The position numbers were made by a program, and so were the translations under genes. The notes beneath the pieces are model-generated. The model worked only from the letters and a program-made list of their open reading frames with translations. It was not told where the DNA came from and ran no database searches. Below are positions 40,416 to 57,508 of a DNA stretch of 64,000 bases, in pieces. The stretch's first letter is position 1; each line of letters starts with the position of its first letter. This stretch comes from Komagataeibacter saccharivorans. GTDB lineage: Bacteria > Pseudomonadota > Alphaproteobacteria > Acetobacterales > Acetobacteraceae. The stretch spans positions 1 through 64,000 of the forward strand of contig NZ_NKTY01000003.1 in assembly GCF_003207825.1 (NCBI RefSeq), written 5' to 3'.

Positions 40416-40497
40416 GATTGCGTCCTTGCTCCGGTCTTCATCCACGCACCGGCGTAGCCCCGTTGACAGGACACGGCAATGCCCGCCCGGTACCCGC

Positions 40498-41175
40498 TCA
40501 GCGTGTGGGCGGGGTCTGTGGGGCCGGCGTAAAATCGAGCGTCTGGCTGGTATAGGTTTCCACAACCTCGCTGAACGGCAGGCCGTGGGCGTCGCGCAGC
40601 ACGGCGCGCTGGCGCAGGATGATGGCGGGGGGCACGATCATCGCACCCACTGCTACCGGGGGTTTTTCATCTGACGGCGACCACAGCCGGACGAATTCCA
40701 GCCGCTCCCGGGAAAAATGCAGCGGAGCGACCACATGGCCGAAAGGCATGTCGGTCTGGTCAAGCGCGTCATTCATCTGCACCGTCAGCCGGTCGGGCAC
40801 GTACCAGTTATCGGCAACCGACAGGACATGCGCGCCACATACCAGTTGCACCTGCCGGTGCCGGATGGCCTGCGTGGCGGTGACGGCCAGATCGGTCCGC
40901 ACCCGCTCGGGCACGGTTTCGGGACTGTTTCCGGCTACCTTGTGTGCGACCACCACGGGCCTGTCGGCCATGCGATGGGTGGCGCACCACTCCTCAAGCG
41001 CACGCGTCGCGCTGGGATGGGTGAGAAGGGTGATTTCCAGTTCCTGAATGGCCGCCAGCATACGGGCACGCCCAGGCGGCGTATCGGGCCAGCCCGAAGC
41101 TGCTGCCGGTGCGGTACCAGCCCATACCATTCCCGTCGCTGCTGCGGCCATGGCCAGAAATCCGCCTTTGCGCAT
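40498..41175 (-). CDS. Chorismate-lyase-like (UbiC/UTRA fold) exported protein
   Basis: A 225-residue protein. The N-terminus looks like a signal peptide (MRKGGFLAMAAAATGMVWAG, cleavage near APAAA-S). The rest matches the outline of chorismate lyase and UTRA domains: an Arg in HRQVQLVCG, NWYVPDRLTVQM, PFGHVVAPL, RERLEFVRLW, then LRQRAVLRDAHGLPFSEVVETYTSQTL with the Glu at the position of the UbiC active-site Glu. UbiC makes 4-hydroxybenzoate in ubiquinone synthesis, but a secreted version would not meet chorismate. It may be a ligand-binding or divergent enzyme. I place it in the superfamily by eye only. It lies downstream of bcsD on the same strand, after a 238-bp gap with no gene. Confidence 0.6.
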   Translation of the reverse strand: MRKGGFLAMAAAATGMVWAGTAPAAASGWPDTPPGRARMLAAIQELEITLLTHPSATRALEEWCATHRMADRPVVVAHKVAGNSPETVPERVRTDLAVTATQAIRHRQVQLVCGAHVLSVADNWYVPDRLTVQMNDALDQTDMPFGHVVAPLHFSRERLEFVRLWSPSDEKPPVAVGAMIVPPAIILRQRAVLRDAHGLPFSEVVETYTSQTLDFTPAPQTPPTR

Positions 41176-41413: not shown

Positions 41414-41884
41414 TTACAGCGCGTTGCTGCGCACGCGCATGTAAAGGATGATGGTCTGGCGGGGCACGGAATCCAGATCTTCCGCTTCCAGATCACGCAC
41501 CACCACGTAATCACCGAACGCACCCGGCTGCGACGTGATCCAGCGGCCATACAGCCCTTCCAGCACCGGTGCCAGCCAGGTTCCCGGCGGTTCGCCCGCG
41601 CTACCGACCTGCGGCAGGTCTTCATGCACGATACGCAGGGTCTTTTCCTCGCTCAGCAGTTCAAGCGAGACATAGCCCCAGCCCAGCATGGACAGCAGGG
41701 CGTTCAGTTCGATCTGAAGCGTATCAAGCGTATTGCACAGCGGCGGCGCCAGACGGCCCGCCATGCCACGACCGACCTCGCGCAGAAGTTCGTTCCTGAC
41801 CTCGATCCCCGCCTGATCGTCGATTTCCCAGGACAGCGCCTGAAGGAACAGGGAAAAATCCGGTTGTTTCTTGAAAGTTGTCAT
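41414..41884 (-). CDS. bcsD: Cellulose synthase subunit D
   Basis: A 156-residue periplasmic subunit that forms the octameric channel guiding four glucan chains and aligns synthase sites for crystalline cellulose. The protein is close to the Komagataeibacter BcsD: PDFSLFLQALSWEIDDQAGIEVR near the start (in parts), LREVGRGMAGR, IVHEDLPQVGSAGEPPGTWL, APVLEGLYGRWITSQPGAFGDYVV in parts, and TIILYMRVRS at the end. Length equals the family. It is the last gene of the cluster. Unusually, bcsC does not precede it; bcsAB ends 204 bp upstream. The ATG overlaps the stop of an 11-codon leader ORF as TAATG. Confidence 0.96.
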   Translation of the reverse strand: MTTFKKQPDFSLFLQALSWEIDDQAGIEVRNELLREVGRGMAGRLAPPLCNTLDTLQIELNALLSMLGWGYVSLELLSEEKTLRIVHEDLPQVGSAGEPPGTWLAPVLEGLYGRWITSQPGAFGDYVVVRDLEAEDLDSVPRQTIILYMRVRSNAL

Positions 41885-41919
41885 TACTGGTCCATAACAA
41901 GATAGTGGTTCGAAATCAT
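41884..41919 (-). CDS. 11-codon leader ORF coupled to bcsD
   Basis: ATG at 41919 has the strong ribosome site GGGGGAGT five to six bases upstream and encodes MISNHYLVMDQ before TAA. The stop overlaps the bcsD ATG as TAATG. The bcsD gene itself has only GGA as a ribosome site, so translation of the leader may load ribosomes onto bcsD. It could also be the relic tail of a gene once located here, such as bcsC; I cannot prove either. Confidence 0.4.
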   Translation of the reverse strand: MISNHYLVMDQ

Positions 41920-42088
41920 GGCACTCCCCCGCGGTCGTGCTGTCGTCGCGCTGATTACGCTGCCACCATGCCGCACCGGGGCTGCGGATAAAACAGCAAT
42001 AATCTACTCTGCCACCGAATAGGCCCCGCGGCTAGGCCGTCCATGCGCCCCGCGCGCCGCTGGCGCACGGGACACGGAAGCGGCCCGG

Positions 42089-45000
42089 TCAGTCGCGATA
42101 GGTCCGGCGCTGGTCCTGCAGTTCCTTGTATCGACGGGTGGCGTGGCGGACGAGCGCACGTGTCATGACCGCCGTCAGCAGCACGCAGGCAAACAGGCCC
42201 AGCACCAGCACGCGCGAGGGATGGTTGTGCATATACCAGTCCGGCCACATCCACAGCGGCAGCGACCCCACCGTATAGAGCGGCGAACTGCGATAGGTGG
42301 ACAGCGTATCACCATGCACCAGCAGCAGGTCGCCCTGTATCTGCGGCTGGTCCTTACGCGATTCCAGCACCTGGATCAGGTTGTTCAGTCCCTGTCCATC
42401 GGCTGAAAGCAGGGCCAGGACCGTGCGCCCGGCCATGAGCGGCGACTGGGACTCCATCATCGCGCCGACCCCGCCGGTCAGGTCGCTTTCCATTTCCGTG
42501 GTCCCATGCCCCTGCAGCGCGGCCAGCGGACTGCGGAACGCATTCCATATACCACCCAGCGGCGTGCGGATGGACATGTGCAGGCGGCCATCGGAAATCT
42601 GGTAAGCCGAATTGGCCAGCAGCGGCGAGATGTCCCCGCTTTCACCCAGCGTGCTCAGGACGATCAGGTTCCGGTCCGCAACATCGCTGACATGGTCGGC
42701 GGTCACGATCTCAACACCCGCAACCGGATACCATGACGATGCGCCCATGAACCCCATCAGGTCCATGAACACGCTGATCGTGCTGGCGGAAGGATGATCG
42801 GGCAGCACGACGGCAGTACGGGACAGGTCGGCATAGGTCGTGAACGGGTACCCCGCACTGGCCAGATAGGCCAGGTTGGGCATGGTGGTGATATGGAAGG
42901 CATTTGAAAAATTGATCGTGGAATCAGGATCAACCGACAGGTGAAGCACGTTCAGCCCGGCCCGGCATACCGCGCTCGACATGGGCATGGCGTCGAAATA
43001 GAAATGAAGCTGGTTCTTGCCATAGATCAGCCATGGCGGCAGCGAGACGATATGGCTCTCCACCCCCGATGCCGCGTGCAGGCCCAGATGTTCCAGCACG
43101 TTCTTGATGGCATTGCTGTCATCACGCAGGGAATAGGAGCGGACATAGACATCGTTCACCCCCACATCCAGATGCGACCGGGACACGTCCACAATCGGCC
43201 CGTCGGGGGAGCGGAAACGCACATCCATCTTGTACGGACGGTCATGCCAGGTGTACAGATCCGGCGGCACGCGGAACGGCACGCTCATGATACCGGGTGT
43301 ATAGCCCACCCCCTGCAGCACGCCGGGCGGCACCAGTTCACCCAGCTTGACCGGCCGGTTGGTCGGAATGAAGGCGGGCGCGTCGTTAGGCCTGCTCGGC
43401 GCCAGATCGATGGGGGCGATGTCCGCGCGCGGCGCGTTGGGCAGCGTGGCGGAACCGAAGCCAAGTCCCTTGCTGGCCGTAATCACCTCATCACGGTCGC
43501 GGCCCGTCACCACCAGAACCGTGCCATTGGCATCGGACGGATTGGCAAGCTCCAGCACGGTCGGCCCGTTGACCTGCAGATGCCCCAGCGCCGCGGGCAG
43601 TTCCGCAACCACGCCCACCGCAACCGCATTACCCCGCTGCGGTATGGTGGAGGAGACGGGAAAGGTCACGCCACGGAAATCGGTCTGTTTGCCGAACCAT
43701 GAGGCGACGATGCTGCTCGCGGTCAGGATTTCAGAATCGTAGCTGGCCGCCAGCACCATGGGAATGGTCGCCTGCTGGTCCACAGCCTTGTCGAAAAACG
43801 GCTGCGGCAGGCGGGAAAGCTGCCTGCGCGGCGGCAGGGGAATGGTCGTGACCTGCAACTGCGAATTTTGGGAAATGGTTGCCCACATCAGCTTGTCGGT
43901 CGGGTCGGCACAGCCCTGCGTGCCTGCGGCGAAATTGAAATTCAGCCGGTTCCCGTTCACGAAGAAGATCGGGTTCACATCGAACGCAATCGGCCCGAAT
44001 GCCGGCTGCGAAGGGGTGGGACGCAGCGTGCCGACATACTGTTCGTTCAGCGTGATGGTGACGGCGCTGGTCTCGGGCCGCAGGCTGGGTGACATCGCCC
44101 CGGAAACGATCAGCCGCGCGGAGGTGACAAGCCGGTCGGCGGGCACACCGAATTCCAGACCCTGCAACGGCGAGTTGCTGCGCATGGTCAGGGCGCGCGG
44201 TGCGCCAAGCTGTTCCAGCGTATAGGTGTGGGTGGTGGCCATCTGCTCCCCCGCCCCACTGGCGTTCTCGCCACTATCCACTGCGGCTTCCGCAGCGGCG
44301 GCGTCGGTATCGGCATCGCTCGCCGGGACCGGTGCTGGCGTGGATACGGGTGCGGACGCGGGTGAGGGTGAGGAAGCCGCCTGCGCCGATGCCGCCCATG
44401 ACAGGCATGCCAGCAGCGGCAGTATTTTCAGGCTGCGCGTGCCGGACAGCAGACCGGTCTTGCGCCTGCGCTGGGCGCCATCCGTCCCGGCCGTTCCTTC
44501 ATCCGTTAACACATTTTCCTCACTGAGACTGGGATAGCTGGCCTCTGCCCCCGCATTGCGCCGCCGCCTGGGGAAATAGAACAGACCTTTGATGTTGATA
44601 AGGATTTCCATCACGCTGCGCAGGGGTTGATCATATCTGTAATCGTTCCAGTCCATCCACGCATCTGCACGACCGAACACGATGCGGACGATACTGGCTT
44701 CTTCCGGAATGGAGCCTATATCCCATTGCAGGACGCATTTGCCATTGCTGCTACGGATCACACGCGCCTTAAGATGCGCCTGCTCCCCTTCGATGCCGAC
44801 GCGGACATCGACCTGCTGCGGTGCCGTGACCGGGTGGGGCCAGTTCATGCTGACCGACGCCCCACCCATGGACAGGTCCTCGGTCATGCCATTCATCGTG
44901 ACGCCGTCCTCGCCCATGATGCTGACCGGCAGTTCCGCGCGGATACGATGGCTATACCGCTTCTGCTGCGTTTCCCGGCCCACGGCGATGGCGGCAAGGA

Positions 45001-46678
45001 TAATCAGCAGGCTGATTGCGGCCCACAGGGAATTGAGCAGATAACCGCGCCGGGCGATGAAATCGACATGCTCGAAAAACAGCCCGTAGATCCCCCGCGA
45101 CAGGCCGATCAGCATCACGATGCCCAGAATGATATTGGGATAGACCGCGCGCAGGTCGAAATACCCGCTTTCCAGCACGCCGCCCTTGTTCGTGACATTG
45201 AAGCGGGCGCGTCTGGGACGCAGCAGGGTCGCGATCGTCACGCGCACCAGAAACAGCGCCATGGTGGTTTCGTACACCTCGCTCCAGAACGAATACCGCC
45301 AGCCCTTGTTGATGCGCGACGCCGTGGCAATCGCGTGCAGCATATGCGGAACAGCGTAGGCCAGCACCGCCAGCGGCGAAGCGGTAATGATATTCTGGCC
45401 AAAAAACAGGAAGGCCAGTGGCGAGGTCAGGAACACCACCCGCGGCACCGCGAACAGGAAGGAGATCATGGCCGACAGGTAACAGAGCCGCTGCCCCCAG
45501 TTCAGCCCCGGCCCCAGCAGGGGATTGTCGATACGGAAAATCTGCAGCATCCCGCGTGCCCAGCGGACGCGCTGGCCGATATGCGTGATCAGCCGTTCCG
45601 TCGCCAGCCCGCCTGCCAGCGGTATGCGCAGATAGGCGGTGGACCATCCCTGACGCTGCATGCGCAGGGCGGTATGCGCATCCTCGGTCACGGTCTGGGT
45701 GGCGAAGCCGCCTATGCCCTCGATCGCCTCACGACGCAGGATGGCGCATGAGCCGCAGAAAAAGGTCGCATCCCAGAAGTCATTGCCATCCTGCACCACG
45801 CCATAGAACAGGTTGCTTTCCGGCGGGGTACGGAAACCGGTCGCCAGATTGCGCTGGAAGGGATCGGGAGAATAGAAATGATGCGGGGTCTGCATCAGCG
45901 CGATCTTGGGGTCCCCGATCATCCAGCCCATGGTTAACTGAAGGAAGGCACGGGTGGGAATATGGTCGCTGTCCAGCGTCAGGATGAACTCGCCCGATGT
46001 CCGTTTGAGCGCGTAGTTGAAATTACCGGCCTTGGCATGTTCATTTATGGGGCGCGCGATGTAGGCCACCCCGCACTCTTCGGCAAACCGGGCGAATTCT
46101 TCCCGCTTTCCGTCATCCAGGACATAGACGTTCAGCTTGTCACGCGGCCAGTCGATGCCCAGCGCGCCAAGTATGGTCAGGCGGACAATGCTCAGATCCT
46201 CGTTATAGGTGGGGATGTAGACATCGACCGTGGGCCAGTCCCTGGCATTGTCGGGCAGGGGAATGGGCGCGCGGCCCAGCGGGTAGATGGTCTGGAAATA
46301 GGTCAGGAAGAGCATCACCAGCGCATACAGTTCCGCCGTAAGCAGGAACGTGCCCAGTCCGATCTCGATCCAGGTGTCGAAATAAAGCGTATCGGTCAGA
46401 CGCCATGTGAGATAGCGCAGGGATACGGCAGCCGACAGGACTTCCAGAAAGACCTGGACATGCCGGGTCTTTTTTCTGCCAACCACGAAAAAGACGGCCA
46501 TGTAGACAAAGGCCACGACCAGTTGCTGGTTGGGCGTCAGCGTGACCGTACTGGCCGCGAACAGGGCGCACAGGGCGATAGCAACCGTAATTCCAATTCC
46601 CGGACGGGATGCGAGGAACAGTTCTAACCGGCGCGACCATGCCGATTCGGCCCGTGTTGGCGACTCAACCTCTGACAT
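42089..46678 (-). CDS. bcsAB: Fused cellulose synthase catalytic and regulatory subunit (BcsA-BcsB)
   Basis: A 1529-residue fusion. Residues 1-720 are BcsA: membrane helices, a family-2 glycosyltransferase with VLDDG (188-190), DSD (236-238), TED (331-333) and QRVRW (369-373), then a PilZ domain for c-di-GMP with R574-x3-R578 and DLSMGG (601-606). The BcsB part begins near residue 760 after [16 protein letters not shown], a signal-like helix; it contains the periplasmic carbohydrate-binding repeats and ends with one membrane helix ([21 protein letters not shown]). It polymerises UDP-glucose into beta-1,4-glucan. The ATG at 46678 ([12 protein letters not shown]) matches the family N-terminus. 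A 256-bp gap separates it from ccpAx. The type I versus type II affiliation was not settled here. Confidence 0.97.
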
Positions 46679-46934
46679 AAATCCACTCGTCCGAAATAAA
46701 CTGCAAAAACAGAAAACTGCATTCAAAAACTGTCAGACAGTCATTACGCCTGCCGCCAGCATGCACAACGGCACTCCAGCCGCCTGAAAACCGGCGGGCG
46801 GTCTGGACGGAAAAGGCCCAGATCGTGCGAAACGGCGGGGATAATGCCCCGCCTGTCCCGGTCGTCATATCGTCACACGGTTTCAGGGGAGCCATAGCGG
46901 ACTGGCCCTGAAACCACGCGCGATACGTTCCTTT
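46679..46934 (-). other. Intergenic region between ccpAx and bcsAB
   Basis: The 256-bp gap holds no gene. It has a 9-bp perfect inverted repeat (GTTTCAGGG 46880-46888 with CCCTGAAAC 46906-46914), a GGCGGGG/CCCCGCC hairpin near 46833-46853, and near bcsAB a run of CAGTTT direct repeats. It is large enough for an internal promoter for bcsAB-bcsD. Confidence 0.45.
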
Positions 46935-48071
46935 TCAGGATTCTTCTTCTTCCCGGCGGCGCAGCAGGGCGTCGCGCAGGGTGGATTTGGGGGTCAGGCG
47001 TTCGGTCGCGCGGCCACCAAGGATCATGAACATTTCGCTCATGGTCGGCGAACCATCAGCCGACGGAGTGGAGACGGTTTCGCTGTTGGGGTTCGAATTC
47101 GACTTGGTCATGCTCTTCACCTTGGAATGTTGGGGACGGGAAACGCGCACGGGAACGGAGCTGAACAGCCTGCGTTCATCCGGTGGGCGGTTGAGGGAGA
47201 AAACAAGGCTACGGCTTGCAGGGCGCGGGCGTTCCCCGCGCTGGTGCCGCGCCTTGGGAACGGGCATCCAGTCCTCCTCCCCGGTTTCCTCCGGGAAGGA
47301 TAGCGGAAGCTCCAGCGCATGTTTTTGTGGCGACGACATCGGTTCCTTATAGGGTGGTAGGGCACGGGGCCAGCGATCCACTTTGGCGTTCCGGCGCGCG
47401 GGCTGCAATGCCGGTGTGGGGACAGGCTCCTCCACCGGTGGGGCAGGAGCGGGCTCATGCGCTTCCACCGGCGGCGATTCGATTGCGGGAAGCGGCGAAG
47501 CCTGCGTTTCGTGTGGTTCCGGTTCTGGCAACGCAGGCGGCTCAGGCGCCACGGCGGCTTCCGGCGGGGGGAGCGCGGGTTCTTCCACCGCGGGTGGCGG
47601 CGGCGCTTCATGCGCTATGGCAGGCGCGGGCGGGCGGTCGTCATGCGCGGGCTCGGGCGGCACATCGGTGCCGATGGCAGGCAGGGCATGATCCCCGTGT
47701 TCGGGCGTTTCTTCCGCCGTTACGTCTTCCGGCCCGTCTTCGCCTTCATCGTGTTCTTCTGGCTCTTCTGGCTCTTCTGGCCCGTCGCGCATTTCCGGTT
47801 CTTCAGCCGGTTCGTTTTCACCCGGTTCGCTGTCACCCTGCCAGTCGTAAGGGTCCTCGGTCTCGGCGGGGCCTTCTTCTTCGTGGCTGGAAGGCGGTGC
47901 GATCGCAGGGGGACCATCCGGGGGCTGAAAGGCGGGGTCGCTAAAGGGACGGTAAACGAATCCCTGCTCGACACCGAAGCTCTGCAGGACACGTTCTATA
48001 TCCTGCGGACGCTCCCCTGCCGGGGCCTGGCCATTGCCTTCAACCCTGTCTTCCGACCCTGAACCGCTCAC
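46935..48071 (-). CDS. ccpAx: Cellulose-complementing protein CcpAx
   Basis: A 378-residue protein needed for high cellulose output and for arranging terminal complexes, where it interacts with BcsD. The N-terminal part (ERVLQSFGVEQGFVYRPFSDP) and the C-terminal signature FMILGGRATERLTPKSTLRDALLRRREEE are well conserved. Between them lies a long acidic Glu/Pro-rich stretch (residues about 55-240, many EEPEEPEE, PPPPAVEE, PEPPALPEP units) that is probably disordered and length-variable. The GTG start at 48071 forms GTGA with the cmcAx stop and has GAGGAG upstream; this choice makes it 378 residues. The open frame extends 38 codons further but overlaps cmcAx. Confidence 0.9.
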   Translation of the reverse strand: MSGSGSEDRVEGNGQAPAGERPQDIERVLQSFGVEQGFVYRPFSDPAFQPPDGPPAIAPPSSHEEEGPAETEDPYDWQGDSEPGENEPAEEPEMRDGPEEPEEPEEHDEGEDGPEDVTAEETPEHGDHALPAIGTDVPPEPAHDDRPPAPAIAHEAPPPPAVEEPALPPPEAAVAPEPPALPEPEPHETQASPLPAIESPPVEAHEPAPAPPVEEPVPTPALQPARRNAKVDRWPRALPPYKEPMSSPQKHALELPLSFPEETGEEDWMPVPKARHQRGERPRPASRSLVFSLNRPPDERRLFSSVPVRVSRPQHSKVKSMTKSNSNPNSETVSTPSADGSPTMSEMFMILGGRATERLTPKSTLRDALLRRREEEES

Positions 48072-49189
48072 TTCGCTTGCTCCTCTGCTCGCGCGATATA
48101 AACCAGAAGCGTCAATGCCGCAGAATAATAATCCGGCGAATGGTCCAGTGTCGGCAATTCCGCGACGGAAGCAAGCCCCGTGCACTGCGCCACCGCCAGA
48201 TAGCCCGGTGGAGCATTATAAGGCGAGCGCGCGCCCGTCGTCAGGTCCACCCATGCAGGCAGCCCGTCCGCGCCAAAATGATTCCAGAACCGGGCATAAT
48301 CCGCCTGCAGGCGTGGCGTCAGCATGTGGGCCCAGTACAGATACAGGGGCACACGGATCGCATCATAGGAAAAACGCGGCGGCCATCCCTTCGCGATGGA
48401 GAAAACCTGCGTATGCCGGTCCATGGCGACCCAGTCCGCAGGCAGCCGCCACTGACCGAACCGGGCCTGCAGGATGATGCGCATGCCATCATGCATGATC
48501 GTGCGCCACGCCCGGTCGGCCGTCAGTTCCAGGGCCTGCAGCAGCGCGGGCATGATGTAATAGGACAGGTTGAGTATCACCACATCCGGCGTGACAAAAC
48601 CCGTCGCCCCCGGCAGCAGGACCCGATACCCCCCGACCTGCAGGGTCATGTGTTTCAGGACATCGCGATAGATCGCAATCGCATCATGCACCAGATCGGT
48701 GCGTCCCCATCGCACCCCCGCGCGCCCAAGGGCCAGTGCGATCAGCAGGTCGCCGTCGGTGGCGTTGTTGGTGTCGGGCACGGCGGGATCATGGTCGGGC
48801 AAGAACCGCCATGAAAACAGTTTGTCCTTCGTATGCTGCAAGGTGGTGCGCGCCCAGTTCCACATGACCTCGAACGACTGGAGATCACCGGCGGCAACGG
48901 CAAAAAGCATGCCGTAGCCCTGCCCCTCGCTATGGGACTGGCCATTATTGCCGGTATCGACAATGCGGCCGTCAGGACGGAAATATTGCGCGCGGAAGAT
49001 GGCCCATTGCGCCGCGATGGCATCCGGTCCCGGCGGGGCGACAGGGGAAGCCGCACGGGCGCACGACATCCCGCCCCCGATTGCCGCAAGGGCCGCCAGC
49101 ATGGCGCGGCGGCCCATTGCCGGGCGCGGGGGGAGCGGTGCGCCGCTGTCAGATGTCATGGAATTCGCGTGCATCAGATAATCATGCAT
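48068..49189 (-). CDS. cmcAx: Endo-beta-1,4-glucanase CmcAx (GH8)
   Basis: A 373-residue family-8 glycoside hydrolase, equivalent to BcsZ, which trims and helps organise nascent cellulose. Core motifs: SEGQGYGMLFAVAAGDL (catalytic Glu), KLFSWRFLPDHDPAVPDTNNATDGDLLIALALGRA (Asp of the NNATDGD motif), then SYYIMPALLQALEL, GWPPRFSYDAIRVPLYLYWAHML and YNAPPGYLAVAQCTGL in parts. The N-terminal region has MGRRAMLAALAAIGGG, a twin-arginine-like signal, so it may be exported by Tat or Sec. Start uncertain: ATGs at 49189, 49174, 49159 and later are all possible; none has a clear ribosome site. The 94-bp gap upstream is short. The stop overlaps the ccpAx start. Confidence 0.93.
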   Translation of the reverse strand: MHDYLMHANSMTSDSGAPLPPRPAMGRRAMLAALAAIGGGMSCARAASPVAPPGPDAIAAQWAIFRAQYFRPDGRIVDTGNNGQSHSEGQGYGMLFAVAAGDLQSFEVMWNWARTTLQHTKDKLFSWRFLPDHDPAVPDTNNATDGDLLIALALGRAGVRWGRTDLVHDAIAIYRDVLKHMTLQVGGYRVLLPGATGFVTPDVVILNLSYYIMPALLQALELTADRAWRTIMHDGMRIILQARFGQWRLPADWVAMDRHTQVFSIAKGWPPRFSYDAIRVPLYLYWAHMLTPRLQADYARFWNHFGADGLPAWVDLTTGARSPYNAPPGYLAVAQCTGLASVAELPTLDHSPDYYSAALTLLVYIARAEEQAK

Positions 49190-49283
49190 CCTGTGGAGTT
49201 ATCAGGTTTTCCTATCCGAAATCCATCAAACTGCAACCGCAGCCAGTCCCTGCATACCTTCCTCCGCGCGGCAGCACGCCGGT

Positions 49284-50972
49284 TCAAGGCGCTTCCAGCA
49301 GCAGGCGTCCGATCCGGTCCCAGACCATGCTGGCCAGAATGGCATGCCCCGTCTGCGAGGGATGCGTATCATCAGCCAGCCAGTTGGTATGGTTTTCGAC
49401 GTTGTAGAGCGGCTGGTCAGGCGCGAAGGGATCGATCTCGATATCGGGGGCAAGCGTTCCGTCGTGGATCGCGGCTTTCAGTGCCGCACGCGGCGCGCCG
49501 CCGGTACTGGTCTCATCAATCAGGGCTACGGTGAAACCGGCCTTTTTAAGCCGCCTGATGATTTCCGCGATGTTCCGCACGGTTTCATCTGCCGGGATAT
49601 GGCTAGAAGGCAGGTGGTCATTATAACCACCGAACACGACGGCCACCTTCGGGCCGGCACCCCGGCCTACCGCTTCCGCCGCGGGAACCATGCCCAGCAT
49701 CTGCCGCGTGTTCGCACCCGATACCGCCAGATCATAGCTCTGGTAACGTCCGTACTGCTGCATGAGGTATGGCCAGTTCCGGCCATCGGACAGGCCATAC
49801 CCCTCCGAACGGCTGTCACCGATCGTGACAAGGGCCGGGCGAAGCTGGGGCATGTAGTTTCCGGCTGCCGCTGCCGCTGCATGGAACAACCGCCGCTGCG
49901 CGGGATCAGGTGCATGGTCGGCAATAACCAGACCGCTCCACTGTCCCGTATTGCGCCCCTGCGAAAACCACGGACCGCCATCCATGTTGAACCCGACATA
50001 CCCCCCGGCCAGTCCGCCCGCCGCCACGCTGCCGGACAGGCTGGCGGCTGCATTGCCGGAATGGAGGCCATAGCCCGCAGGTGTCGCATACACGTCGAAC
50101 GCGGCGGGCGCGTTGGTAATGACCAGATCCGTCCGGCGGTCCGGGCTGGCCGCATCACCTATATGGGTGAACCCATCCAGACTGTAACTGCCGAAAAAGA
50201 CCCTGAACGTCCGCCCCCGCCCGGCACTGCCCAGCAGGACTGGCACGGGATAGGCCGCATATCCGGAATTGGAGGAAGCATAGGTGCCCACACTTCCAAA
50301 AAAGAAGTCATTCGCCGGAACCTTCACCCCCGCCGGGATGACAAATCCCCCCGGCCCGTTCTCTTCCCCCCATGAAAGGGTCTCGTTCCCCGCGATACGG
50401 ACCTCACCGATATGGACCACATGCCGTCCTTCGGTCGCCAGCAGGTGATGGCCATGCCCGCTCTGGTCATATACCCGCAGGACCGTGGCGAACGTGCCCG
50501 CGTCACGCCCGGCAAGACGTGTTCGCAACGTGTCCTGATCCAGCATGCCGCCAGGCAGGATCGCAAGCGTGGTCACGACCCGCCTGCCCCCCTGCACCGT
50601 TTCCACATCGACCGCAGGCCCGACATAGCCGGAAACCATCTGCACCGCGCCCCCCGCAAACACCACATGACCGGCCAGCGCATCCGCCGGACGCGCGACC
50701 ACCATCGGTTCCCACCGCGCGCTTCCCGCCGTTACCGATGCCGCCTGCCAGACCTGTCCGCCCGCCTGCCAGATATCGCCCGTGGCATAACCCTTCGTGC
50801 TGTCATCATATTGTCCCGGCGCGCGGTCCATACCGCCGGATCGGCTATCAGGCGCAGGAATGCACACGCCGCTTCCCCCCGGCGCATCCGCGCATGACGC
50901 CGCATGGCCGGGCAGCGTATGGCCCGTGATCCCAAGGGTCAGTACGGCAAGGCAGAGAGATTTCTTTTTCAT
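49284..50972 (-). CDS. Secreted SGNH hydrolase with arabinofuranosidase-like N-terminal domain (ORF569-like)
   Basis: A 562-residue exported protein, with signal peptide KKKSLCLAVLTLGITGHTLPGHA. After a Cys/Gly-rich segment, residues about 90-320 resemble a concanavalin-fold arabinofuranosidase-like domain (VLRVYDQSGHGHHLL is the YDQSG signature). The last third is SGNH: VTIGDSRSEGYGL (Ser block), FGGYNDHLPSSH (GxND block) and DDTHPSQTGH (Asp/His block). Such proteins act on acyl groups of glycans. Its place after bcsC and its size fit the ORF569 reported behind bcsCII, but identity is inferred by position and length. ATG at 50972 starts the signal peptide; the open frame extends 32 codons further. 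It overlaps no gene and lies 34 bp after bcsC. Confidence 0.78.
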   Translation of the reverse strand: MKKKSLCLAVLTLGITGHTLPGHAASCADAPGGSGVCIPAPDSRSGGMDRAPGQYDDSTKGYATGDIWQAGGQVWQAASVTAGSARWEPMVVARPADALAGHVVFAGGAVQMVSGYVGPAVDVETVQGGRRVVTTLAILPGGMLDQDTLRTRLAGRDAGTFATVLRVYDQSGHGHHLLATEGRHVVHIGEVRIAGNETLSWGEENGPGGFVIPAGVKVPANDFFFGSVGTYASSNSGYAAYPVPVLLGSAGRGRTFRVFFGSYSLDGFTHIGDAASPDRRTDLVITNAPAAFDVYATPAGYGLHSGNAAASLSGSVAAGGLAGGYVGFNMDGGPWFSQGRNTGQWSGLVIADHAPDPAQRRLFHAAAAAAGNYMPQLRPALVTIGDSRSEGYGLSDGRNWPYLMQQYGRYQSYDLAVSGANTRQMLGMVPAAEAVGRGAGPKVAVVFGGYNDHLPSSHIPADETVRNIAEIIRRLKKAGFTVALIDETSTGGAPRAALKAAIHDGTLAPDIEIDPFAPDQPLYNVENHTNWLADDTHPSQTGHAILASMVWDRIGRLLLEAP

Positions 50973-51006
50973 GGCCTGCGATCCCGGTTGCGCCGCATCT
51001 CTCCGC

Positions 51007-54000
51007 TCAGTCCTCTTCCGCCGACAGGCGGGAAGATGACGCAGCCTGCGTTTTGTCAGGCGCATCAAATACGTAATGAAACATCAGCATCCCGCTGGTT
51101 TCCGACCAGCTTCCCGCGCGCGTGAAACCGCCATTCAGCCCCAGCCGGAACTGCGGCGTAAGCTGGTAGACCAGTTGCCCCGACACGTTGCCCGCAACCC
51201 CGCTTGCGCCACCCCCTGCCAGTCGGCCACTGCCCTGCGACAGCGTGGCCTGAAGCTGCGGGTCGCGCGGATAGACCGGGGAACTGCCGCTATGGTAATT
51301 CTGGTATCCTGCCTCCCCACGCAGGAACCAGTTCCAGCGGCCCTGACGCCCGGACCATGTAACCGGCACCATCGCGCCGTAATAGGAGCTGGGGGAAAAG
51401 TATCCCCCCTGCCCCATCGTGAAGAAATAGGTGTTACGCCTGTACCCGAAATAGATCAGGTCCAGCCCCACGCGCAGGGCCTGCCGGTCGTTGTGATTCC
51501 ACACGATCACATTGCCACCGGCACCGGCCTCGCCTTCCGTATTGCCAACGACATTGGTGCCTTCCACATAGGCGCCGCCGCCCCCGGCATACAGGGTCCA
51601 AAACGGACGGGCGTATTCTATCGCCCCATGACCGAATACACGCGTCACCCCGCCCCATGTCCTGCCGGTACCGGGATCGGTCATGCCGGCATAGGACAGG
51701 ATGCTATCGGTCACCATGCGGCGGCCGCCACTGATGTGCAGCCGCAGGTTACGCGTAAGCGAGGGGGCGAATTCGACACCACCCAGAACGTTGGTAATGG
51801 GGAAGCCCAGCGGTGATGTGCCCACATCGCCCGTAAACCAGCGGTTGGTGTAACTGACACCCAGACTGACACCCTGCGCGTCGTAATGGTTCTTCAGCGT
51901 GCCGCCATTGACCCCGACCGTCCCGAACATGTTCATGCCATAGGATGTCGGCTGGGGCCTGCCGGTGAACAGGAATGTCGGCGTAAGGGAAAATGTCAGC
52001 CGGTGCGCCCATGACGAGAGCGGGAAGGTGGCCGTCACCGGCACGGCCAGTTCCGTCATCTGCCCTTCCCCGCTGGCCCCGGTGCGGCCCCGGACATAGA
52101 TGTTCGAATCAATCTGCGGGGCAAGCGTTTCGCGCAGGTAGGCGATCTGCCGGTCGGTCGCCTGTATGGCCGTGTCATCGAACATGATCTGATAGCCCGC
52201 AGGCAGCGGGACAACACCCGGCCCGTTACGCTCGATGTGCATTTGTGGCCAGACATAGTCCGGCACAAAGGTATCGTGCGGTGGGCATTTTTTGGTCAGG
52301 CGGCCAGAGCACAGCAGCTCACGCACATGTTCCAGATCCGCAAGCTGGATGCGGGCATGGCCTTCGGCGCGGGCAATGTCCGACCGCGCTTCCCATGTCG
52401 GCGCGGCTTCAGGTGCGACATCCATCAGCCGCTTCATGTAGGCATGGGCGGATGCCATGACGTCCGCCCCCACCGAATCATCCACCGCCGCCGTCAGGGC
52501 CGACGGATTGTCCGGATGTGCATTCAGCACCGTCACGTCTTCATCCAGCGCGCGGCGCGGTTTGTCTTCCCTTGCATATACGCGCCCCAGCGCCAGATGC
52601 GCGGCGGCAGAGGAAGGATTGCCCATCACCAGTGGCAGCATCAGCTTTTCCGCCAGAGCCGTCCGGCCTTTCTGGTCCAGCCGGTCCGACTGCATGATGG
52701 TCAGGCCAATCTCGATCTGGTGGCGGACATCGCGCTGCTCTGCGGTGATGATATCGGGACTGTCCGTGGCGATGCGATCGAATTCCGTAAGATACGCCCG
52801 CGCATCCCGCAACGAACCGATACGCAATGATGTCCCGGCATAGGACAGTTTCTGGTTCGGCTCGGGATTGAACGTGATTGCGTTCTCGTGCTGCAGCACC
52901 TTGCGGGCCGAACGGGGATCGTCACGGTCCATAAAGGCGATGGCGACGATCATGCCCCGCATGCCGTCCGGGTCGGGCGTGTTCGCCAGCGCCATAAGCT
53001 GGTCCGTATAATCCGCCACACCGGGGTCAATGGCCCGCACTTCATGCGTCAGGCGCAGTTCACGCCCGGCCCGCACCATGTTGGGGGTCTGGCGCGCAGA
53101 CGGCGGCAGACGGGCATAAAGTGCTGTTGCCGTGTCAATTTCGCCATGCGCGATCATATACAGGATCGCCACCTCGATATTCACCGCGGGCACCTGCGCC
53201 CCGCTGGTAAGCTGCTGGATAAGGGCGGCGGCCTGTTCCGTATCCTCATGGACATACAGCGCGTTTGCCAGTTCCAGATGCACCCATGGATCTTCAGGCG
53301 TGTACTCCAGAACTTTCTTCAGCAGGGCGATGCGCTGATCCCCGTCAGTCGCGTGGTCTGCTTCGTAATGCAACTGCATGGCGCGCAGGGTGGGGATACG
53401 CGCGGGCTGCGTGCTTTCCACCATGCGCATCAGTTCATTCACCTGTTCGCCCTGCCCCTTCCCCTGCTGGAGCAGGACATAGGCAAGGTTATAGGCGGCA
53501 TCGGCATTATGGGGCGCAAGACGCAGGATTTCCCGATACGCCTGCGCCGCGTCATCCAGCCGCCCCAGCTTGCGGTCCAGTGCCGCCTGCAGGAACAGCG
53601 CCATGTCGGCGGCATTCGCATGCCTGCGCAAGCGGTTGATGTCATCCTGCGCTGCGGCATACCGTCCGGCGTCGATGGCCGAGCGGGCATTGGCGATCAG
53701 CGGATCGGGCGCCGCGCCGACATAAACTTTCTGCAACGCCGCGCGCCAGTGGCTGTCCGGCGTGGAATCCGCCGCGATCGCCTGCATGAAATAGGCCTTG
53801 GCCTCGTCCGGGTGCTGCTGCGCCTGTGCTGCGATCCCCAGCCCGCCAAGGGAATCCGGATCATTGGGGCTGAGCGTCAGGGCCTGCTGGAACTGGCTGG
53901 CAGCTTCGGCGTATTTCTTTTCCGACAGCAGCTTATACCCGGCCATCCGGGCAGTGGCGGCATCAATGCTGGCCTGTGTCAGTTGCGCCTTCTGCATGAG

Positions 54001-54909
54001 CTTGCGGATTTCCACATCATCGGGATGGCTGGCCAGCCATTCCTGATAGAGCGGGATGCTTGAACCCGTTACCGGCTCCCATGGCAGGGCTTCCCGCCAG
54101 GAAGCCAGTGCCCGATGGCGGATATGGGTGGAATCGGCATCGCGCGCCATCTGCTTCAGATCCGCCAGCCCCTCCGCACGGCTTGCGATGCGGTAGGTCA
54201 GTATGCGGTCATATTCCAGACGTGCATCCATATCTTCCGGATTACGGGCGACATAGTCACCCAGTTTCGTCCGCGCTTCCTGATAGCCCAGAATGGTGGC
54301 CCCGAGTACGCGGTAGTATTCCAGCGCCAGATCGGGCGGTGGATCACCATCCCTGAACAGGGCTTTGTACTTGAACATCGCCGGCATCATCTTGCCGGTT
54401 TCAGCCAGATGCCGTGCCTCCGCCAGTGCCCTGGGGTCGATCGCACTGTATTTGATCTGCGCGTTCAGCATATCGGCATAGGACGCGCCATCACGGCGCG
54501 CCACCAGTTGCTTCGCCGTTGCGTGGGCAGCCGCCATCTCGCCCGTGCCGATCTGGATGCGCCCCTGAAAATACAGGATACGACTGTCATCAGGGGCGAT
54601 GCTCTGCGCTTCGCGCACGACCTCAATCGCCTTGTCGTACTGCTGCTGCCCGATCCAGTACTGGGCCTTGCGCAGGAGCAGACCCAATTCGGGATTATCA
54701 GGCGATGGAACCGTATTTCCGGCCACAACGCCCTGCACCGCGACCGATTGGGAACTGAGCGCAGGACCATCATCCGCGCGCGCCATGCCAAAAGGGATGC
54801 ACAACGTGACACCACATAGCAGCGTCATATTGTACATGCCCTTTGGCATGGACGCGCGGATGCGTCGGGGCACCCCCGCGCCGCGTGGGTCAGGTGCCTT
54901 AATGCACAC
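51007..54909 (-). CDS. bcsC: Cellulose synthase outer-membrane export subunit BcsC
   Basis: A 1300-residue protein. Signal-like region (MTLLCGVTLCIPFGMARA), then about 800 residues of TPR repeats (for example LLRKAQYWIGQQQYDKAIEVVREAQSIAPDDSRILYF in parts and QFQQALTLSPNDPDSLGGLG), ending in the BCSC C-terminal beta-barrel (residues about 930-1280, GTVGVNGGTLKNHYDAQGVSLGVSYTNRW in parts, and MLMFHYVFDAP). It carries glucan across the periplasm and outer membrane. The start could be GTG 54909, overlapping the bcsY stop by 11 bp, or ATG 54849; neither has a good ribosome site. A 92-bp hairpin spans the region. The gene is upstream of cmcAx, not between bcsAB and bcsD. The only bcsC in the window. 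Confidence 0.95.
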   Translation of the reverse strand: MCIKAPDPRGAGVPRRIRASMPKGMYNMTLLCGVTLCIPFGMARADDGPALSSQSVAVQGVVAGNTVPSPDNPELGLLLRKAQYWIGQQQYDKAIEVVREAQSIAPDDSRILYFQGRIQIGTGEMAAAHATAKQLVARRDGASYADMLNAQIKYSAIDPRALAEARHLAETGKMMPAMFKYKALFRDGDPPPDLALEYYRVLGATILGYQEARTKLGDYVARNPEDMDARLEYDRILTYRIASRAEGLADLKQMARDADSTHIRHRALASWREALPWEPVTGSSIPLYQEWLASHPDDVEIRKLMQKAQLTQASIDAATARMAGYKLLSEKKYAEAASQFQQALTLSPNDPDSLGGLGIAAQAQQHPDEAKAYFMQAIAADSTPDSHWRAALQKVYVGAAPDPLIANARSAIDAGRYAAAQDDINRLRRHANAADMALFLQAALDRKLGRLDDAAQAYREILRLAPHNADAAYNLAYVLLQQGKGQGEQVNELMRMVESTQPARIPTLRAMQLHYEADHATDGDQRIALLKKVLEYTPEDPWVHLELANALYVHEDTEQAAALIQQLTSGAQVPAVNIEVAILYMIAHGEIDTATALYARLPPSARQTPNMVRAGRELRLTHEVRAIDPGVADYTDQLMALANTPDPDGMRGMIVAIAFMDRDDPRSARKVLQHENAITFNPEPNQKLSYAGTSLRIGSLRDARAYLTEFDRIATDSPDIITAEQRDVRHQIEIGLTIMQSDRLDQKGRTALAEKLMLPLVMGNPSSAAAHLALGRVYAREDKPRRALDEDVTVLNAHPDNPSALTAAVDDSVGADVMASAHAYMKRLMDVAPEAAPTWEARSDIARAEGHARIQLADLEHVRELLCSGRLTKKCPPHDTFVPDYVWPQMHIERNGPGVVPLPAGYQIMFDDTAIQATDRQIAYLRETLAPQIDSNIYVRGRTGASGEGQMTELAVPVTATFPLSSWAHRLTFSLTPTFLFTGRPQPTSYGMNMFGTVGVNGGTLKNHYDAQGVSLGVSYTNRWFTGDVGTSPLGFPITNVLGGVEFAPSLTRNLRLHISGGRRMVTDSILSYAGMTDPGTGRTWGGVTRVFGHGAIEYARPFWTLYAGGGGAYVEGTNVVGNTEGEAGAGGNVIVWNHNDRQALRVGLDLIYFGYRRNTYFFTMGQGGYFSPSSYYGAMVPVTWSGRQGRWNWFLRGEAGYQNYHSGSSPVYPRDPQLQATLSQGSGRLAGGGASGVAGNVSGQLVYQLTPQFRLGLNGGFTRAGSWSETSGMLMFHYVFDAPDKTQAASSSRLSAEED
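54771..54862. repeat. 92-bp inverted repeat over the bcsC signal-peptide codons
   Basis: The arm 54771-54810 pairs with 54824-54862 (about 34 of 40 positions, e.g. CATCCGCGCG, CCATGCC, AAAGGG, ACAA, TGAC in both) around a 13-nt loop. It lies within bcsC coding sequence, and both arms encode near-mirror peptides (MPKGM.N.T versus reverse-strand). In mRNA it would fold into a strong hairpin that covers the internal ATG start options. Confidence 0.85.
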
Positions 54910-56059
54910 GTGACACGGACGATATGTAGAACAGAATCATCGCCAGCCCCCCACAGGCACCGACCAGCGCCAGCGCGCCGTAATTACGTGCAGTAGGTGT
55001 CAGGCGGCCTTCGTAATCAAGGAAAACACGCTCCACAAACACATAACTCAGCAGGCTTGCAACCAGGGCCGCCAGCAGCACGCCCCCCATCACCATGCCA
55101 TGGACCTGGAACTGCAGCAGGTAATTGGCAACCACGATGGCGGGCCAGTGCCACAGGTACACCGAATAGGAAACAACCCCCAGCGGCGACAGGGGAACCA
55201 GCGCCATGCGGGCCACATCGTGCTGCGGGCACATGATGATGGCCATGACCGCCAGACAGGGCACGATAATCATATAGGACGGACAGGCGTACTGCAGCGT
55301 GTAGAAAAACATCACGCCCACAAGAAGGGCGATCGCCACGCCACACACGATATTGGACACGGCCCGCCCCGGTTGTGGACGCGGCAGTATCCAGATCATC
55401 GCACCAAGGGAGAACTCCCACAGGCGGTCGAGAATATTATAATACCCCTGCGTATCGCCGGTAAAATGGCTGTACAGGTCATATCCCAGCGACAGGACAA
55501 AAATACCGATCACCACCATATGCCGCAGCGGCGCCAGCCTGACCGCGAGCGCCACGGCAAGGATGACCAGATAGAACTGCATCTCCAGCGAGAGCGACCA
55601 GGTATGCAGGAAGGGGTAGGCAATGCTCTGCCCCTCGAAATACCCGACATGGCCCGATGCCCATATATTGGACAGATAGACCAGCGCATACGCCCCGTTG
55701 ATGGCGATATCCGCACGGTCGCTTTGCAGTACCCACCACAGCATTCCGGCGGATATGGCGGCAATCATGCACAAAAGTGCGGGCAACAGGCGGTACAGCC
55801 GGCGGCAGATGAACCGCATGGGCTGGAACGGCTGCGTCACCAGTGCGGAATGTCCGATGAAATAACCGGAAATGACAATAAAGATATCGACGCCAATAAA
55901 GCCGCCCTGCAGCCACCCGGCATGGAAAAGCATGACGGACAGCACGGCCAGCCCCCGCAGGCCGTCGATATCGCGCCGACGGCTTGTGGGAAAGAACTCG
56001 TTCTGAAGTATGCGTCGCCATGTATTGTGGGCAGCATTGACCGCCTGACTCTGGATCAT
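54899..56059 (-). CDS. bcsY: Acyltransferase-3 family membrane protein BcsY
   Basis: A 386-residue integral membrane protein with about ten helices. The OafA/YrhL pattern is plain: RDIDGLRGLAVLSVMLFHAG (catalytic His in LFHA), GGFIGVDIFIVISGYFI (G-V-D-x-F-F-V-x-S-G-Y), RRLYRLLPAL and HTWSLSLEMQFYL. Family members transfer acyl groups, often acetyl, to sugars or polymers at the membrane. BcsY is known from type II cellulose operons, where it is thought to acylate cellulose. The ATG at 56059 (MIQSQAVNAAHN) is used; a TTG three codons upstream is also possible. It is downstream of bcsX by 63 bp and overlaps bcsC. Confidence 0.9.
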   Translation of the reverse strand: MIQSQAVNAAHNTWRRILQNEFFPTSRRRDIDGLRGLAVLSVMLFHAGWLQGGFIGVDIFIVISGYFIGHSALVTQPFQPMRFICRRLYRLLPALLCMIAAISAGMLWWVLQSDRADIAINGAYALVYLSNIWASGHVGYFEGQSIAYPFLHTWSLSLEMQFYLVILAVALAVRLAPLRHMVVIGIFVLSLGYDLYSHFTGDTQGYYNILDRLWEFSLGAMIWILPRPQPGRAVSNIVCGVAIALLVGVMFFYTLQYACPSYMIIVPCLAVMAIIMCPQHDVARMALVPLSPLGVVSYSVYLWHWPAIVVANYLLQFQVHGMVMGGVLLAALVASLLSYVFVERVFLDYEGRLTPTARNYGALALVGACGGLAMILFYISSVSRVH

Positions 56060-56122
56060 GATCCGCAATCCATGAAATACACCACCCTTCGGCCCGCGCC
56101 CCCTGTCGGGGCAGACACGGGG

Positions 56123-56794
56123 TTACTGCGCCGAAGCGGGTGATTCCGCCCTGATCTTCTCCAGCATGGGCAGTGTTGTCTGGATGATCGCGTTACCCCA
56201 GACCTGATAACTTGCGCCCGTGGCGTGAATACCATCGATGGTGTTGACCGAACCGGGTTTCATGAGCTGCGTGCCGTCAACATAGGCGCAGGGCGAAACC
56301 TCGCTTTTCAGCAGTTCCGCCATTTCAGCCGCGCGCTTGTCGGTCTTGCCGTAGCGCGGGCTGTACTGCCCCCATGTGGGACCAATCCAGATGCACGCGG
56401 TCTTGCCGATGGTATAGGTCAGGGTCTTGACCTGTTCATCCACCCAGTCCTTCGACACCGTGTTCTGGCCATAGGCCGCCATGGTGTCGCCCAGCACGAC
56501 CATGATGACATCCGGATGCCATTTTTCCATCAGCGCGGAAATGGGCGGTGGGGAGGCGGGTTTCATGTTGGGGGCGCCGATCGGCGCATCGCCGATGCGC
56601 TCGGCCGCGCCACAGCCGTTATTGGGATTGGGCACGACCCAGTCCGCCGCCGTGGATGAACACACCCCGTATGTCACGACTTTCGCACCCTGCTTCGTAT
56701 ATTCATCAGGGAGAATGGAGAGCAGGGAATCCTTGAATGTTACATGGCTGTCGCCAATGATCAGAAGCGTGAGACCAGCCAGCAACGCATTCAC
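56123..56794 (-). CDS. bcsX: SGNH-family hydrolase BcsX
   Basis: A 223-residue protein. It begins with a short hydrophobic stretch (NALLAGLTLL) running into IIGDSHVTF, the GDS block of the SGNH family; a later VVLGDTMAAYG block and the DGIHATGASY Asp-His pair complete the triad. The family cleaves ester bonds; BcsX in type II cellulose operons is thought to work with BcsY on acyl groups of cellulose. The GTG start has GGAG eight bases upstream. It is the first gene of the cluster, with a 640-bp AT-rich region upstream. The name BcsX is taken from position beside bcsY and fold. Confidence 0.85.
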   Translation of the reverse strand: MNALLAGLTLLIIGDSHVTFKDSLLSILPDEYTKQGAKVVTYGVCSSTAADWVVPNPNNGCGAAERIGDAPIGAPNMKPASPPPISALMEKWHPDVIMVVLGDTMAAYGQNTVSKDWVDEQVKTLTYTIGKTACIWIGPTWGQYSPRYGKTDKRAAEMAELLKSEVSPCAYVDGTQLMKPGSVNTIDGIHATGASYQVWGNAIIQTTLPMLEKIRAESPASAQ

Positions 56795-57435
56795 AATCCA
56801 TTACTCCACAAGTTTTTTACGAATGTTAAGCGCATAGCAGAAAAAAAAATATCGAACCAGAGCCACAGCCACCGTGCGCGCGATGGCGACCGCATCGGCC
56901 TTTATCAGCCATCTGCGCTTCTATTATTATGATTTTAATCGTTTTTATTTCCATTTTCACGCTGGCGGACCGATACGAAAACCGGACAGAAAGTTAGACT
57001 GGCACATCTACGTGCCTGACAAATTCATGAAAAAACAGGCCCGGCCCCAAAAATAGAGGCCGACAGTCCGGTATTCTTTCTGCCTGTCGCCCCGCGAATA
57101 TCACAAAAATATATTTTTTTAAAAAATTGTCATGAAAAATTATGGAAAAAAGTCAGAAAATATCCATCAAACCCCCGGCGAAAACCAGATCGTTTCGATC
57201 TGTTGATCACCACATGCCATGATATGTTTTTACAAACCGTAAAGTGCCGCAACAGTAGTCCTGCTTTCCAGAACAGCATTCCGCCGGCACCTGCACGAAC
57301 TGCATTATATTTACAAAAGCAGACAGAAATCCCGCACAGGACTTCAGATGCGCACAAGTGGGCGCATCCATATGCCACGCCGCTATTGCCCGCATAAGCA
57401 GGAAGGGCAATATCATTTGCGATATGAAGAATTGG
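56795..57435. other. AT-rich upstream region of the cellulose locus
   Basis: No gene is seen in 641 bp. The region is far richer in A/T than its neighbours, with runs such as AAAAAAAAA near 56840 and the TATATTTTTTTAAAAAATT stretch at 57113-57127, and short hairpins (ATTGCCC/GGGCAAT near 57385-57413). It must contain the bcsX promoter; no confident -35/-10 pair was picked. An intergenic position beside a tRNA gene makes it a plausible island border. Confidence 0.5.
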
Positions 57436-57508
57436 CGTCCCGTACGGGATTCGAACCCGTGTTGTCGCCGTGAGAGGGCGATGTCCTAGGCCTCTAGACG
57501 AACGGGAC
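57436..57508 (-). tRNA. tRNA-Glu (anticodon CTC)
   Basis: On the minus strand GTCCCGT begins the acceptor stem and ACGGGAC closes it, with G as discriminator. The anticodon stem TCGCC/GGCGA carries the loop CTCTCAC, so the anticodon is CTC (Glu, codon GAG). The T-arm holds GGTTCGAATCC. The 73-nt length fits a tRNA without an encoded CCA. Confidence 0.95.

What the first reader, a model, noticed from the sequence alone, without database searches (positions are those of the whole stretch)
41414..56794. Composite cellulose synthase locus joining type II and type I parts, with a single bcsC out of place
In transcription order the eight co-directional genes are bcsX, bcsY, bcsC, an ORF569-like SGNH gene, cmcAx, ccpAx, bcsAB and bcsD. 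As I know the published operons, type I is cmcAx-ccpAx-bcsAB-bcsC-bcsD and type II is bcsAB-bcsX-bcsY-bcsC-ORF569. Here the type II tail lacks its bcsAB and the type I core lacks bcsC between bcsAB and bcsD. The join lies in the 94-bp gap at 49190-49283. This would make one locus in which crystalline-cellulose genes (ccpAx, bcsD, cmcAx) share transcripts with acylation genes (bcsX, bcsY). It suggests recombination or an ancestral arrangement.
Basis: partly seen in the sequence, partly recalled or inferred. Interest (0 to 1): 0.75.

Follow-up and report, generated by a model that had tools for sequence, protein, structure and literature searches.

The report
Merged cellulose operon, already published
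In a small group of vinegar bacteria two cellulose-making gene clusters have become one and a cellulose-export gene was lost; the merged order was already reported in 2022, but a short leftover of the lost gene still sits in the DNA and shows how it arose.

Summary
In detail: eight co-directional genes, bcsX-bcsY-bcsC-SGNH-cmcAx-ccpAx-bcsAB-bcsD, with BcsC of type II and BcsAB/BcsD of type I, and no second BcsC or BcsAB found in the genome. It is not new: two 2022 papers describe it, for strain FNDCF1 (PMC8855687) and K. saccharivorans (PMC9318390). I found the same order in 3 of 19 Komagataeibacter genomes (one split over two contigs); the other 16 have a bcsC next to bcsD. Added here: (1) the flanks, with a tRNA-Glu, are those of the ordinary type I locus, so a bcsX-Y-C-SGNH block lies in the native type I site; (2) the bcsAB-bcsD gap ends in 38 bp matching the 3' end of the missing type I bcsC, identical in all three species: a deletion scar; (3) bglAx, bcsAB-II and the TetR-like neighbour of type II were not found. 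So it is a derived merger, not an ancestral layout. Function is open: the three sequenced carriers with a reported phenotype make no cellulose.

The parts
56123..56794 (-). bcsX, SGNH hydrolase of the type II set, first gene of the composite
   Evidence: 83-84% identical to BcsX of the two sister composites
54899..56068 (-). bcsY, membrane acyltransferase of the type II set
   Evidence: (Acyl_transf_3, E 1.3e-28)
51007..54909 (-). bcsC of type II, outer-membrane export protein, the only BcsC found in the genome; the real start is probably some codons downstream of the GTG (inferred)
49284..51068 (-).
49190..49283 (-). 94-bp junction between the type II block and the type I core
   Evidence: no terminator-like site on this strand
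48068..49189 (-). cmcAx (GH8 endoglucanase), first gene of the type I core
46935..48185 (-). ccpAx; the long ORF overlaps cmcAx, so the real start may lie downstream
   Evidence: CBP_CCPA, E 1.2e-75
42089..46726 (-). bcsAB, fused type I cellulose synthase; likely start at 46678 (MSEVES...), inferred
   Evidence: GT2 and PilZ motif strings present; motifs recalled
41885..42088 (-). 204-bp bcsAB-bcsD gap where canonical type I loci carry bcsC
41885..41922 (-). deletion scar: 38 bp matching the 3' end of the canonical type I bcsC, next to bcsD; identical in three species
41884..41919 (-). possible 11-codon leader ORF (MISNHYLVMDQ) made of the scar, preceded by GGGGGAG and overlapping the bcsD ATG as TAATG; inference
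41414..41884 (-). bcsD, type I accessory subunit
57433..57508 (-). tRNA-Glu(CTC), upstream neighbour of the type I locus; the type II block lies between it and cmcAx
37345..41175 (-). conserved downstream neighbours of type I bcsD (gene at 40498-41175, then NUDIX-type gene and htpG; the last two names are from PMC8855687 and recall, not from a family search), directly after bcsD because bglAx is absent

Best explanation
This is the merged type I/type II cellulose locus of the lineage of K. saccharivorans, K. melaceti and FNDCF1 (near K. kakiaceti). Shown by sequence: it sits in the native type I site, between tRNA-Glu and the htpG neighbourhood; a bcsX-bcsY-bcsC(II)-SGNH block lies between the tRNA and cmcAx; bcsC(I) is gone but for 38 bp of its 3' end next to bcsD; bglAx, bcsAB(II) and the TetR-like neighbour of type II were not found in the three genomes. 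Inferred: in a common ancestor two systems were reduced to one, in which type I BcsAB makes the glucan, BcsD and CcpAx organise it, the only remaining outer-membrane channel is the type II BcsC, and BcsX, BcsY and the SGNH protein could modify the same product. The scar was probably kept because the bcsC-bcsD junction carries the translation-start context of bcsD. Whether the hybrid makes cellulose is not shown.
For: Same gene order in 3 of 19 genus genomes: window, G012 (one contiguous chromosome) and K. melaceti AV382 = G005 (two contigs, broken in or near ccpAx); the other 16 have a bcsC match within 250 bp of bcsD. tRNA-Glu upstream of cmcAx in 13 of 13 canonical type I loci scanned that reach far enough, 0 of 5 type II loci scanned; the rluD-like neighbour matches in 14 loci. 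Scar: 33 of 38 nt match the canonical bcsC 3' end; best elsewhere in the window 23; maximum in 1000 single-base shuffles of the gap 21; 38 of 38 identical in the three species, within a 93-bp run of identity, next longest 22. The 30-nt junction, with one site allowed A or G (A in canonical, G in composites), is found in 16 of 16 named Komagataeibacter/Novacetimonas-group type I loci and once in the window, 0 expected. One BcsAB match in each of the three genomes. bglAx: 88% full-length match in the one canonical genome tried; only partial matches of 30-41% in the three composites. TetR-like neighbour: 74% in the canonical genome, 28% (E 2.7e-4) in G000, none in G005 and G012. Both papers report the missing bcsCI.
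Against: All three sequenced carriers with a reported phenotype make no cellulose: FNDCF1, whose bcsC has a premature stop, K. melaceti AV382, K. saccharivorans LMG 1582. PMC8855687 takes the gene losses as the cause. G012's bcsC is frameshifted. So the locus may be failing rather than rewired. Flank genes put the lineage inside Komagataeibacter (100/100), but 5 of 7 composite bcs proteins are further from Komagataeibacter than a Novacetimonas is, and the small trees place CmcAx and BcsY with Novacetimonas and BcsX with Gluconacetobacter; import of the locus is not excluded. I found no repeat or mobile element at the join. bcsC-bcsD adjacency is common but not universal in the family.
Confidence: 0.75

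Rival explanations
1. The composite was assembled in another, unsampled acetic acid bacterium and replaced the type I locus of this lineage by homologous recombination through the flanks.
For: Mean Komagataeibacter-composite distances exceed Novacetimonas-Komagataeibacter distances for 5 of 7 proteins: BcsAB (0.452 v 0.419), BcsC (0.790 v 0.600), CmcAx (0.408 v 0.310), BcsX (0.230 v 0.157), BcsY (0.443 v 0.343), whereas flank genes show 0.078 v 0.184 (one Novacetimonas species). CmcAx (92/99) and BcsY (98/94) of the composites group with Novacetimonas, BcsX with Gluconacetobacter (92/89). BcsAB is fused as in the 4 Novacetimonas-group loci, split in all 12 Komagataeibacter type I loci checked.
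Against: BcsD (0.183 v 0.268) and the SGNH protein (0.572 v 0.623) go the other way. AU tests do not reject composite + Komagataeibacter as a clade (BcsAB p 0.482; BcsC p 0.141). No closer BcsC among 249 sampled family genomes, of which only two candidates each were scored. Relative to the flanks, 5 of 7 proteins also diverge faster among the composites themselves than among other Komagataeibacter (BcsAB ratio 3.66 v 2.19), which a faster rate explains in part.
Confidence: 0.3
2. A decaying locus: the loss of bcsC-I, bglAx and bcsAB-II is reductive and the lineage is losing cellulose synthesis.
For: Three of three sequenced carriers with a reported phenotype make no cellulose; frameshifted bcsC in G012.
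Against: All eight ORFs are open in the window and the GT2, PilZ and SGNH motif strings are present; BcsD of the two relatives is 96-97% identical to the window's; gene order is kept in three species. Strains of these species reported to make cellulose exist, but K. kakiaceti JCM 25156 (listed '+') was not checked for the composite and K. saccharivorans MD1 was identified by 16S.
Confidence: 0.3
3. Ancestral arrangement that predates the canonical type I order.
For: Deep, poorly resolved placement of composite BcsAB and BcsC within their types; bcsD lies away from the listed bcsC in some other family genomes.
Against: The bcsC 3' scar; bcsC-bcsD adjacency in 31 of the 60 BcsD-bearing family genomes by my hand match of the two lists, a lower bound since only two BcsC candidates per genome were scored.
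Confidence: 0.03

Closest known systems
Sole 'fused type I and II' bcs operon of Komagataeibacter FNDCF1 (PMC8855687, 2022; operon section read, passages elsewhere)
   Same: One bcs operon only; no bcsCI, bcsAII or bcsBII; type I and II parts fused; same downstream neighbours
   Different: FNDCF1 has a premature stop in bcsCII; the window's bcsC is open over 1300 codons. The parts I read mention no scar; whether its bglX is lost I could not see (figure not held)
K. saccharivorans bcsII placed upstream of a bcsI without bcsCI (PMC9318390, 2022; sections 2.1 and 2.5 and abstract read, passages elsewhere)
   Same: Starts with bcsX, lies upstream of type I lacking bcsC; those authors already propose that bcsCII compensates
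   Different: None found in gene order. The window is probably this species (inference)
Canonical type I operon (bcsZ-bcsH-bcsA-bcsB-bcsC-bcsD-bglX)
   Same: Chromosomal site, cmcAx, ccpAx, BcsAB, BcsD
   Different: bcsC gone but for a 38-bp scar, bglAx absent, bcsAB fused (split in the 12 Komagataeibacter loci checked)
Canonical type II operon (bcsAB-bcsX-bcsY-bcsC, often with the SGNH gene)
   Same: bcsX-bcsY-bcsC-SGNH order and protein kinship
   Different: bcsAB and the upstream TetR-like gene not found; different chromosomal site

Membership tests
Merged I/II operon as described for FNDCF1 and K. saccharivorans | starts with bcsX and lies directly upstream of a type I core without bcsC | tested here: met
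   descriptions
Merged I/II operon as described for FNDCF1 and K. saccharivorans | no bcsCI and no type II bcsAB elsewhere in the genome | tested here: met
   (draft of 107 contigs, rated 100% complete)
Merged I/II operon as described for FNDCF1 | premature stop in bcsC | tested here: not met
   open over 1300 codons; a frameshift is seen in G012 instead
Canonical type I bcs operon | bcsC between bcsB and bcsD | tested here: not met
Canonical type I bcs operon | BcsAB and BcsD of type I kinship, in the conserved type I site | tested here: met
Canonical type II bcs operon | headed by a type II bcsAB | tested here: not met
Canonical type II bcs operon | bcsX-bcsY-bcsC-SGNH of type II kinship | tested here: met
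Either operon | genes co-transcribed | not testable with these tools
   needs RT-PCR or RNA-seq

The most novel reading that the evidence does not exclude
A working hybrid synthase: type I BcsAB with CcpAx and BcsD exports through a type II BcsC and is modified by BcsX/BcsY, and the scar of the deleted bcsC has been kept as an 11-codon leader that sets bcsD translation. This lineage would be a natural experiment on whether crystallisation depends on the cognate BcsC.
Probability: 0.22. Interest if true: 0.5.

Novelty: already known. Interest (0 to 1): 0.27.

Why it matters
It is a ready-made test of whether a type II BcsC can serve the crystalline cellulose machinery and whether BcsX/BcsY act on that product. 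The scar turns a described gene order into a demonstrated deletion and argues against an ancestral layout.

Tried and rejected
Ancestral layout: rejected because of the scar. Mosaic BcsC: rejected, type II is closer in 21 of 21 windows (in the first window both round to 42%). Insertion by a tRNA-targeting element: I looked by eye for a copy of the tRNA-Glu 3' end in 49190-49283 and saw none. Capture of the type I promoter by bcsX: the tRNA-bcsX interval shows no similarity to canonical tRNA-cmcAx intervals at E 1e-3, so not shown. Remnant of bcsAB-II upstream of bcsX or of bglAx after bcsD: nothing convincing. A nearer donor in the family: none seen. Naming the species from 16S: no match in the held assembly; the control rang in only 9 of 14 genomes, so that says little. 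Promoter-like and terminator-like sites are only modestly above shuffles (13 v 6.4, 18 v 12.1) and were given no weight, either way. Five of the seven stretches fetched (L097-L101) were not analysed; L102 and L103 were used, whose output was cut in the middle.

Rows dropped: L039, L043, L047 and L051 from the BcsAB tree for low coverage (L051's matched chain covered half, though its bcsA and bcsB are open); rows under 60% coverage in the other trees; L052, L053, L058 and L060-L080 were not used in trees; no tree was made for ccpAx or the SGNH protein. Tests used 18 BcsAB and 19 BcsC rows; the flank tree 16 rows and four genes. Distances used 7 Komagataeibacter species, 1 Novacetimonas and the 3 composites. 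One search scanned 14 of the 16 named type I loci (L027 and L031 left out); L005 is cut short and gave none.
Full report
What is there. Reading the minus strand from 56794 to 41414, the window carries bcsX, bcsY, bcsC, an SGNH hydrolase gene, cmcAx, ccpAx, a fused bcsAB and bcsD, all open, with the expected Pfam domains except for BcsX, which has none but is 70-85% identical to BcsX of type II loci. One BCSC_C protein and one BcsAB were found in the genome; a second BcsC hit is a weak TPR-only match, E 6.7e-4.

Which types. Against loci from named species, BcsAB is closest to type I (59-64%; 57% to an uncultured relative) and BcsC to type II (45-54%, against 31-34% for type I). In trees of 52 BcsAB and 42 BcsC sequences the composite proteins form one clade that groups with type I and with type II respectively, each with support 100 (quick method, SH-aLRT only); the order inside these groups is poorly resolved. 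BcsC is not a mosaic.

How common. Of 19 genus genomes, 19 have BcsD and 18 have BcsX. In 16 of 19 a bcsC match lies within 250 bp of bcsD, by my reading of the two lists; in G004 that bcsC is in two pieces, and in G002 the match stops 243 bases short of bcsD. The three exceptions are the window, G012 and G005. G012 has the whole composite on one contig; G005 has it on two contigs that break in or near ccpAx. G005 is K. melaceti AV382, because the bcsAB position matches its contig in the named collection. The window is probably K. saccharivorans: PMC9318390 gives this gene order for that species, AV382's closest relatives are K. kakiaceti and K. saccharivorans, and K. saccharivorans is missing from a list that may leave out the window's own genome. 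This is inference.

Where it sits. Genes upstream (rluD-like, rpoH-like, purA-like, hisZ-like; names recalled from the sequences) and downstream (NUDIX-type, htpG; names recalled and) are the neighbours of the canonical type I locus in Komagataeibacter and the Novacetimonas group. A tRNA-Glu(CTC) stands upstream of cmcAx in all 13 canonical type I loci that I scanned and that reach far enough; L005, also scanned, is cut short, and L027 and L031 were not scanned. It is also in the window, G012 and K. melaceti, and in none of 5 type II loci scanned. The composite is therefore the type I site, with the bcsX-Y-C-SGNH block between tRNA-Glu and cmcAx.

What was lost. (a) bcsC of type I: the 204-bp bcsAB-bcsD gap ends in 38 bp matching the 3' end of canonical type I bcsC, including the TAATG overlap with bcsD. 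The match is 33 of 38; the best elsewhere in the window is 23, the best of 1000 single-base shuffles of the gap 21. It is identical in all three species, within a 93-bp run of identity into bcsD, while 861 of the last 1200 positions of bcsAB are identical. The 30-nt junction, one site allowed A or G (A canonical, G composite), is found in 16 of 16 named Komagataeibacter/Novacetimonas-group type I loci, not in the uncultured L045, and once in the window with 0 expected. (b) bglAx: an 88% full-length match in the one canonical genome tried, only partial matches of 30-41% in the composites. (c) type II bcsAB: not found. (d) a TetR-like neighbour of type II, found in 9 of 16 type II loci (some of the others are cut short): 74% match in the canonical genome, 28% in G000, none in G005 and G012. 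The query itself matches TetR models below Pfam's cut-offs, its neighbour ORF above them.

A reading of the scar (inference). In the three composites an ATG near the start of the scar is preceded by GGGGGAG, four bases upstream, not seen in the 16 canonical loci printed, giving an 11-codon ORF that ends on the bcsD start. The junction is strongly conserved in canonical loci too, so it may simply be the translation-start region of bcsD.

Evolution. Four flank genes place the lineage inside Komagataeibacter (100/100). Yet 5 of 7 composite bcs proteins are further from Komagataeibacter than Novacetimonas cocois proteins are; BcsD and the SGNH protein are not. In small trees CmcAx and BcsY of the composites group with Novacetimonas (92/99 and 98/94) and BcsX with Gluconacetobacter (92/89). 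bcsAB is fused as in the Novacetimonas group, split in all 12 Komagataeibacter type I loci checked. Topology tests on BcsAB and BcsC settle nothing (p 0.482 and 0.141 for composite with Komagataeibacter). Faster change after the merger, or import of the locus from an unsampled relative, both remain possible.

Function. The three sequenced carriers with a reported phenotype do not make cellulose: FNDCF1, K. melaceti AV382 (the same paper notes homologues of some bcs1 and bcs2 proteins in it) and K. saccharivorans LMG 1582. PMC8855687 takes the gene losses as the cause in FNDCF1. K. kakiaceti JCM 25156 is listed as a producer (whether it has the composite was not tested), and K. saccharivorans MD1, named by 16S, makes cellulose. 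In K. hansenii bcsY deletion changed the fibre network, crystallinity and stiffness although no acetylation was seen (PMC10106347, passages). If this locus works, type II BcsC as the export channel for a type I synthase is the likeliest way, as PMC9318390 proposed; this is not shown.

Known or new. The gene order is in print twice. PMC13028821 (passages) reports dispersed bcsA signals in two K. saccharivorans genomes, which does not fit a single bcsAB; I could not check those genomes. I saw no mention of the bcsC scar in what I read, and a search for 'Komagataeibacter', 'bcsC' and 'remnant' listed 4 papers, none about this by title (listing only, apart from passages of PMC13028821). Figures and supplements were not available, so prior notice of the scar is not excluded.

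Papers and what I saw: PMC9318390 (abstract, sections 2.1 and 2.5, passages); PMC8855687 (operon section, passages); PMC7465234 (passages; 18, 67); PMC6528568 (passages; 32, 74); PMC11858473 (passages; 19); PMC13028821 (passages; 31); PMC10106347 (passages; 40); PMC7044201 (passages; 75); PMC7098900 (whole text; 39).

Noticed in passing
L091 about 6115-6205 (G012, tRNA-bcsX interval): A roughly 90-bp dispersed repeat that matches, in either orientation, at least 10 of the 12 canonical loci searched; looks like a REP- or MITE-type element.
   Followed up: no
type I loci L024-L028, L030, L031, L033, L034, L040, L049, L051 v L003-L005, L023: bcsA and bcsB are split but overlapping in all 12 Komagataeibacter type I loci checked, fused in the 4 Novacetimonas-group loci and in the window.
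   Followed up: partly
L011 7711-8331, L048 8375-8956: A TetR-like gene stands divergently upstream of type II bcsAB in 9 of 16 type II loci of Komagataeibacter and the Novacetimonas group, which suggests a shared type II site rather than repeated independent gain.
   Followed up: partly
L091 8659-12556 (G012 bcsC): bcsC is split by a frameshift near residue 1165-1171, in the stretch that matches BCSC_C in the window's protein.
   Followed up: partly
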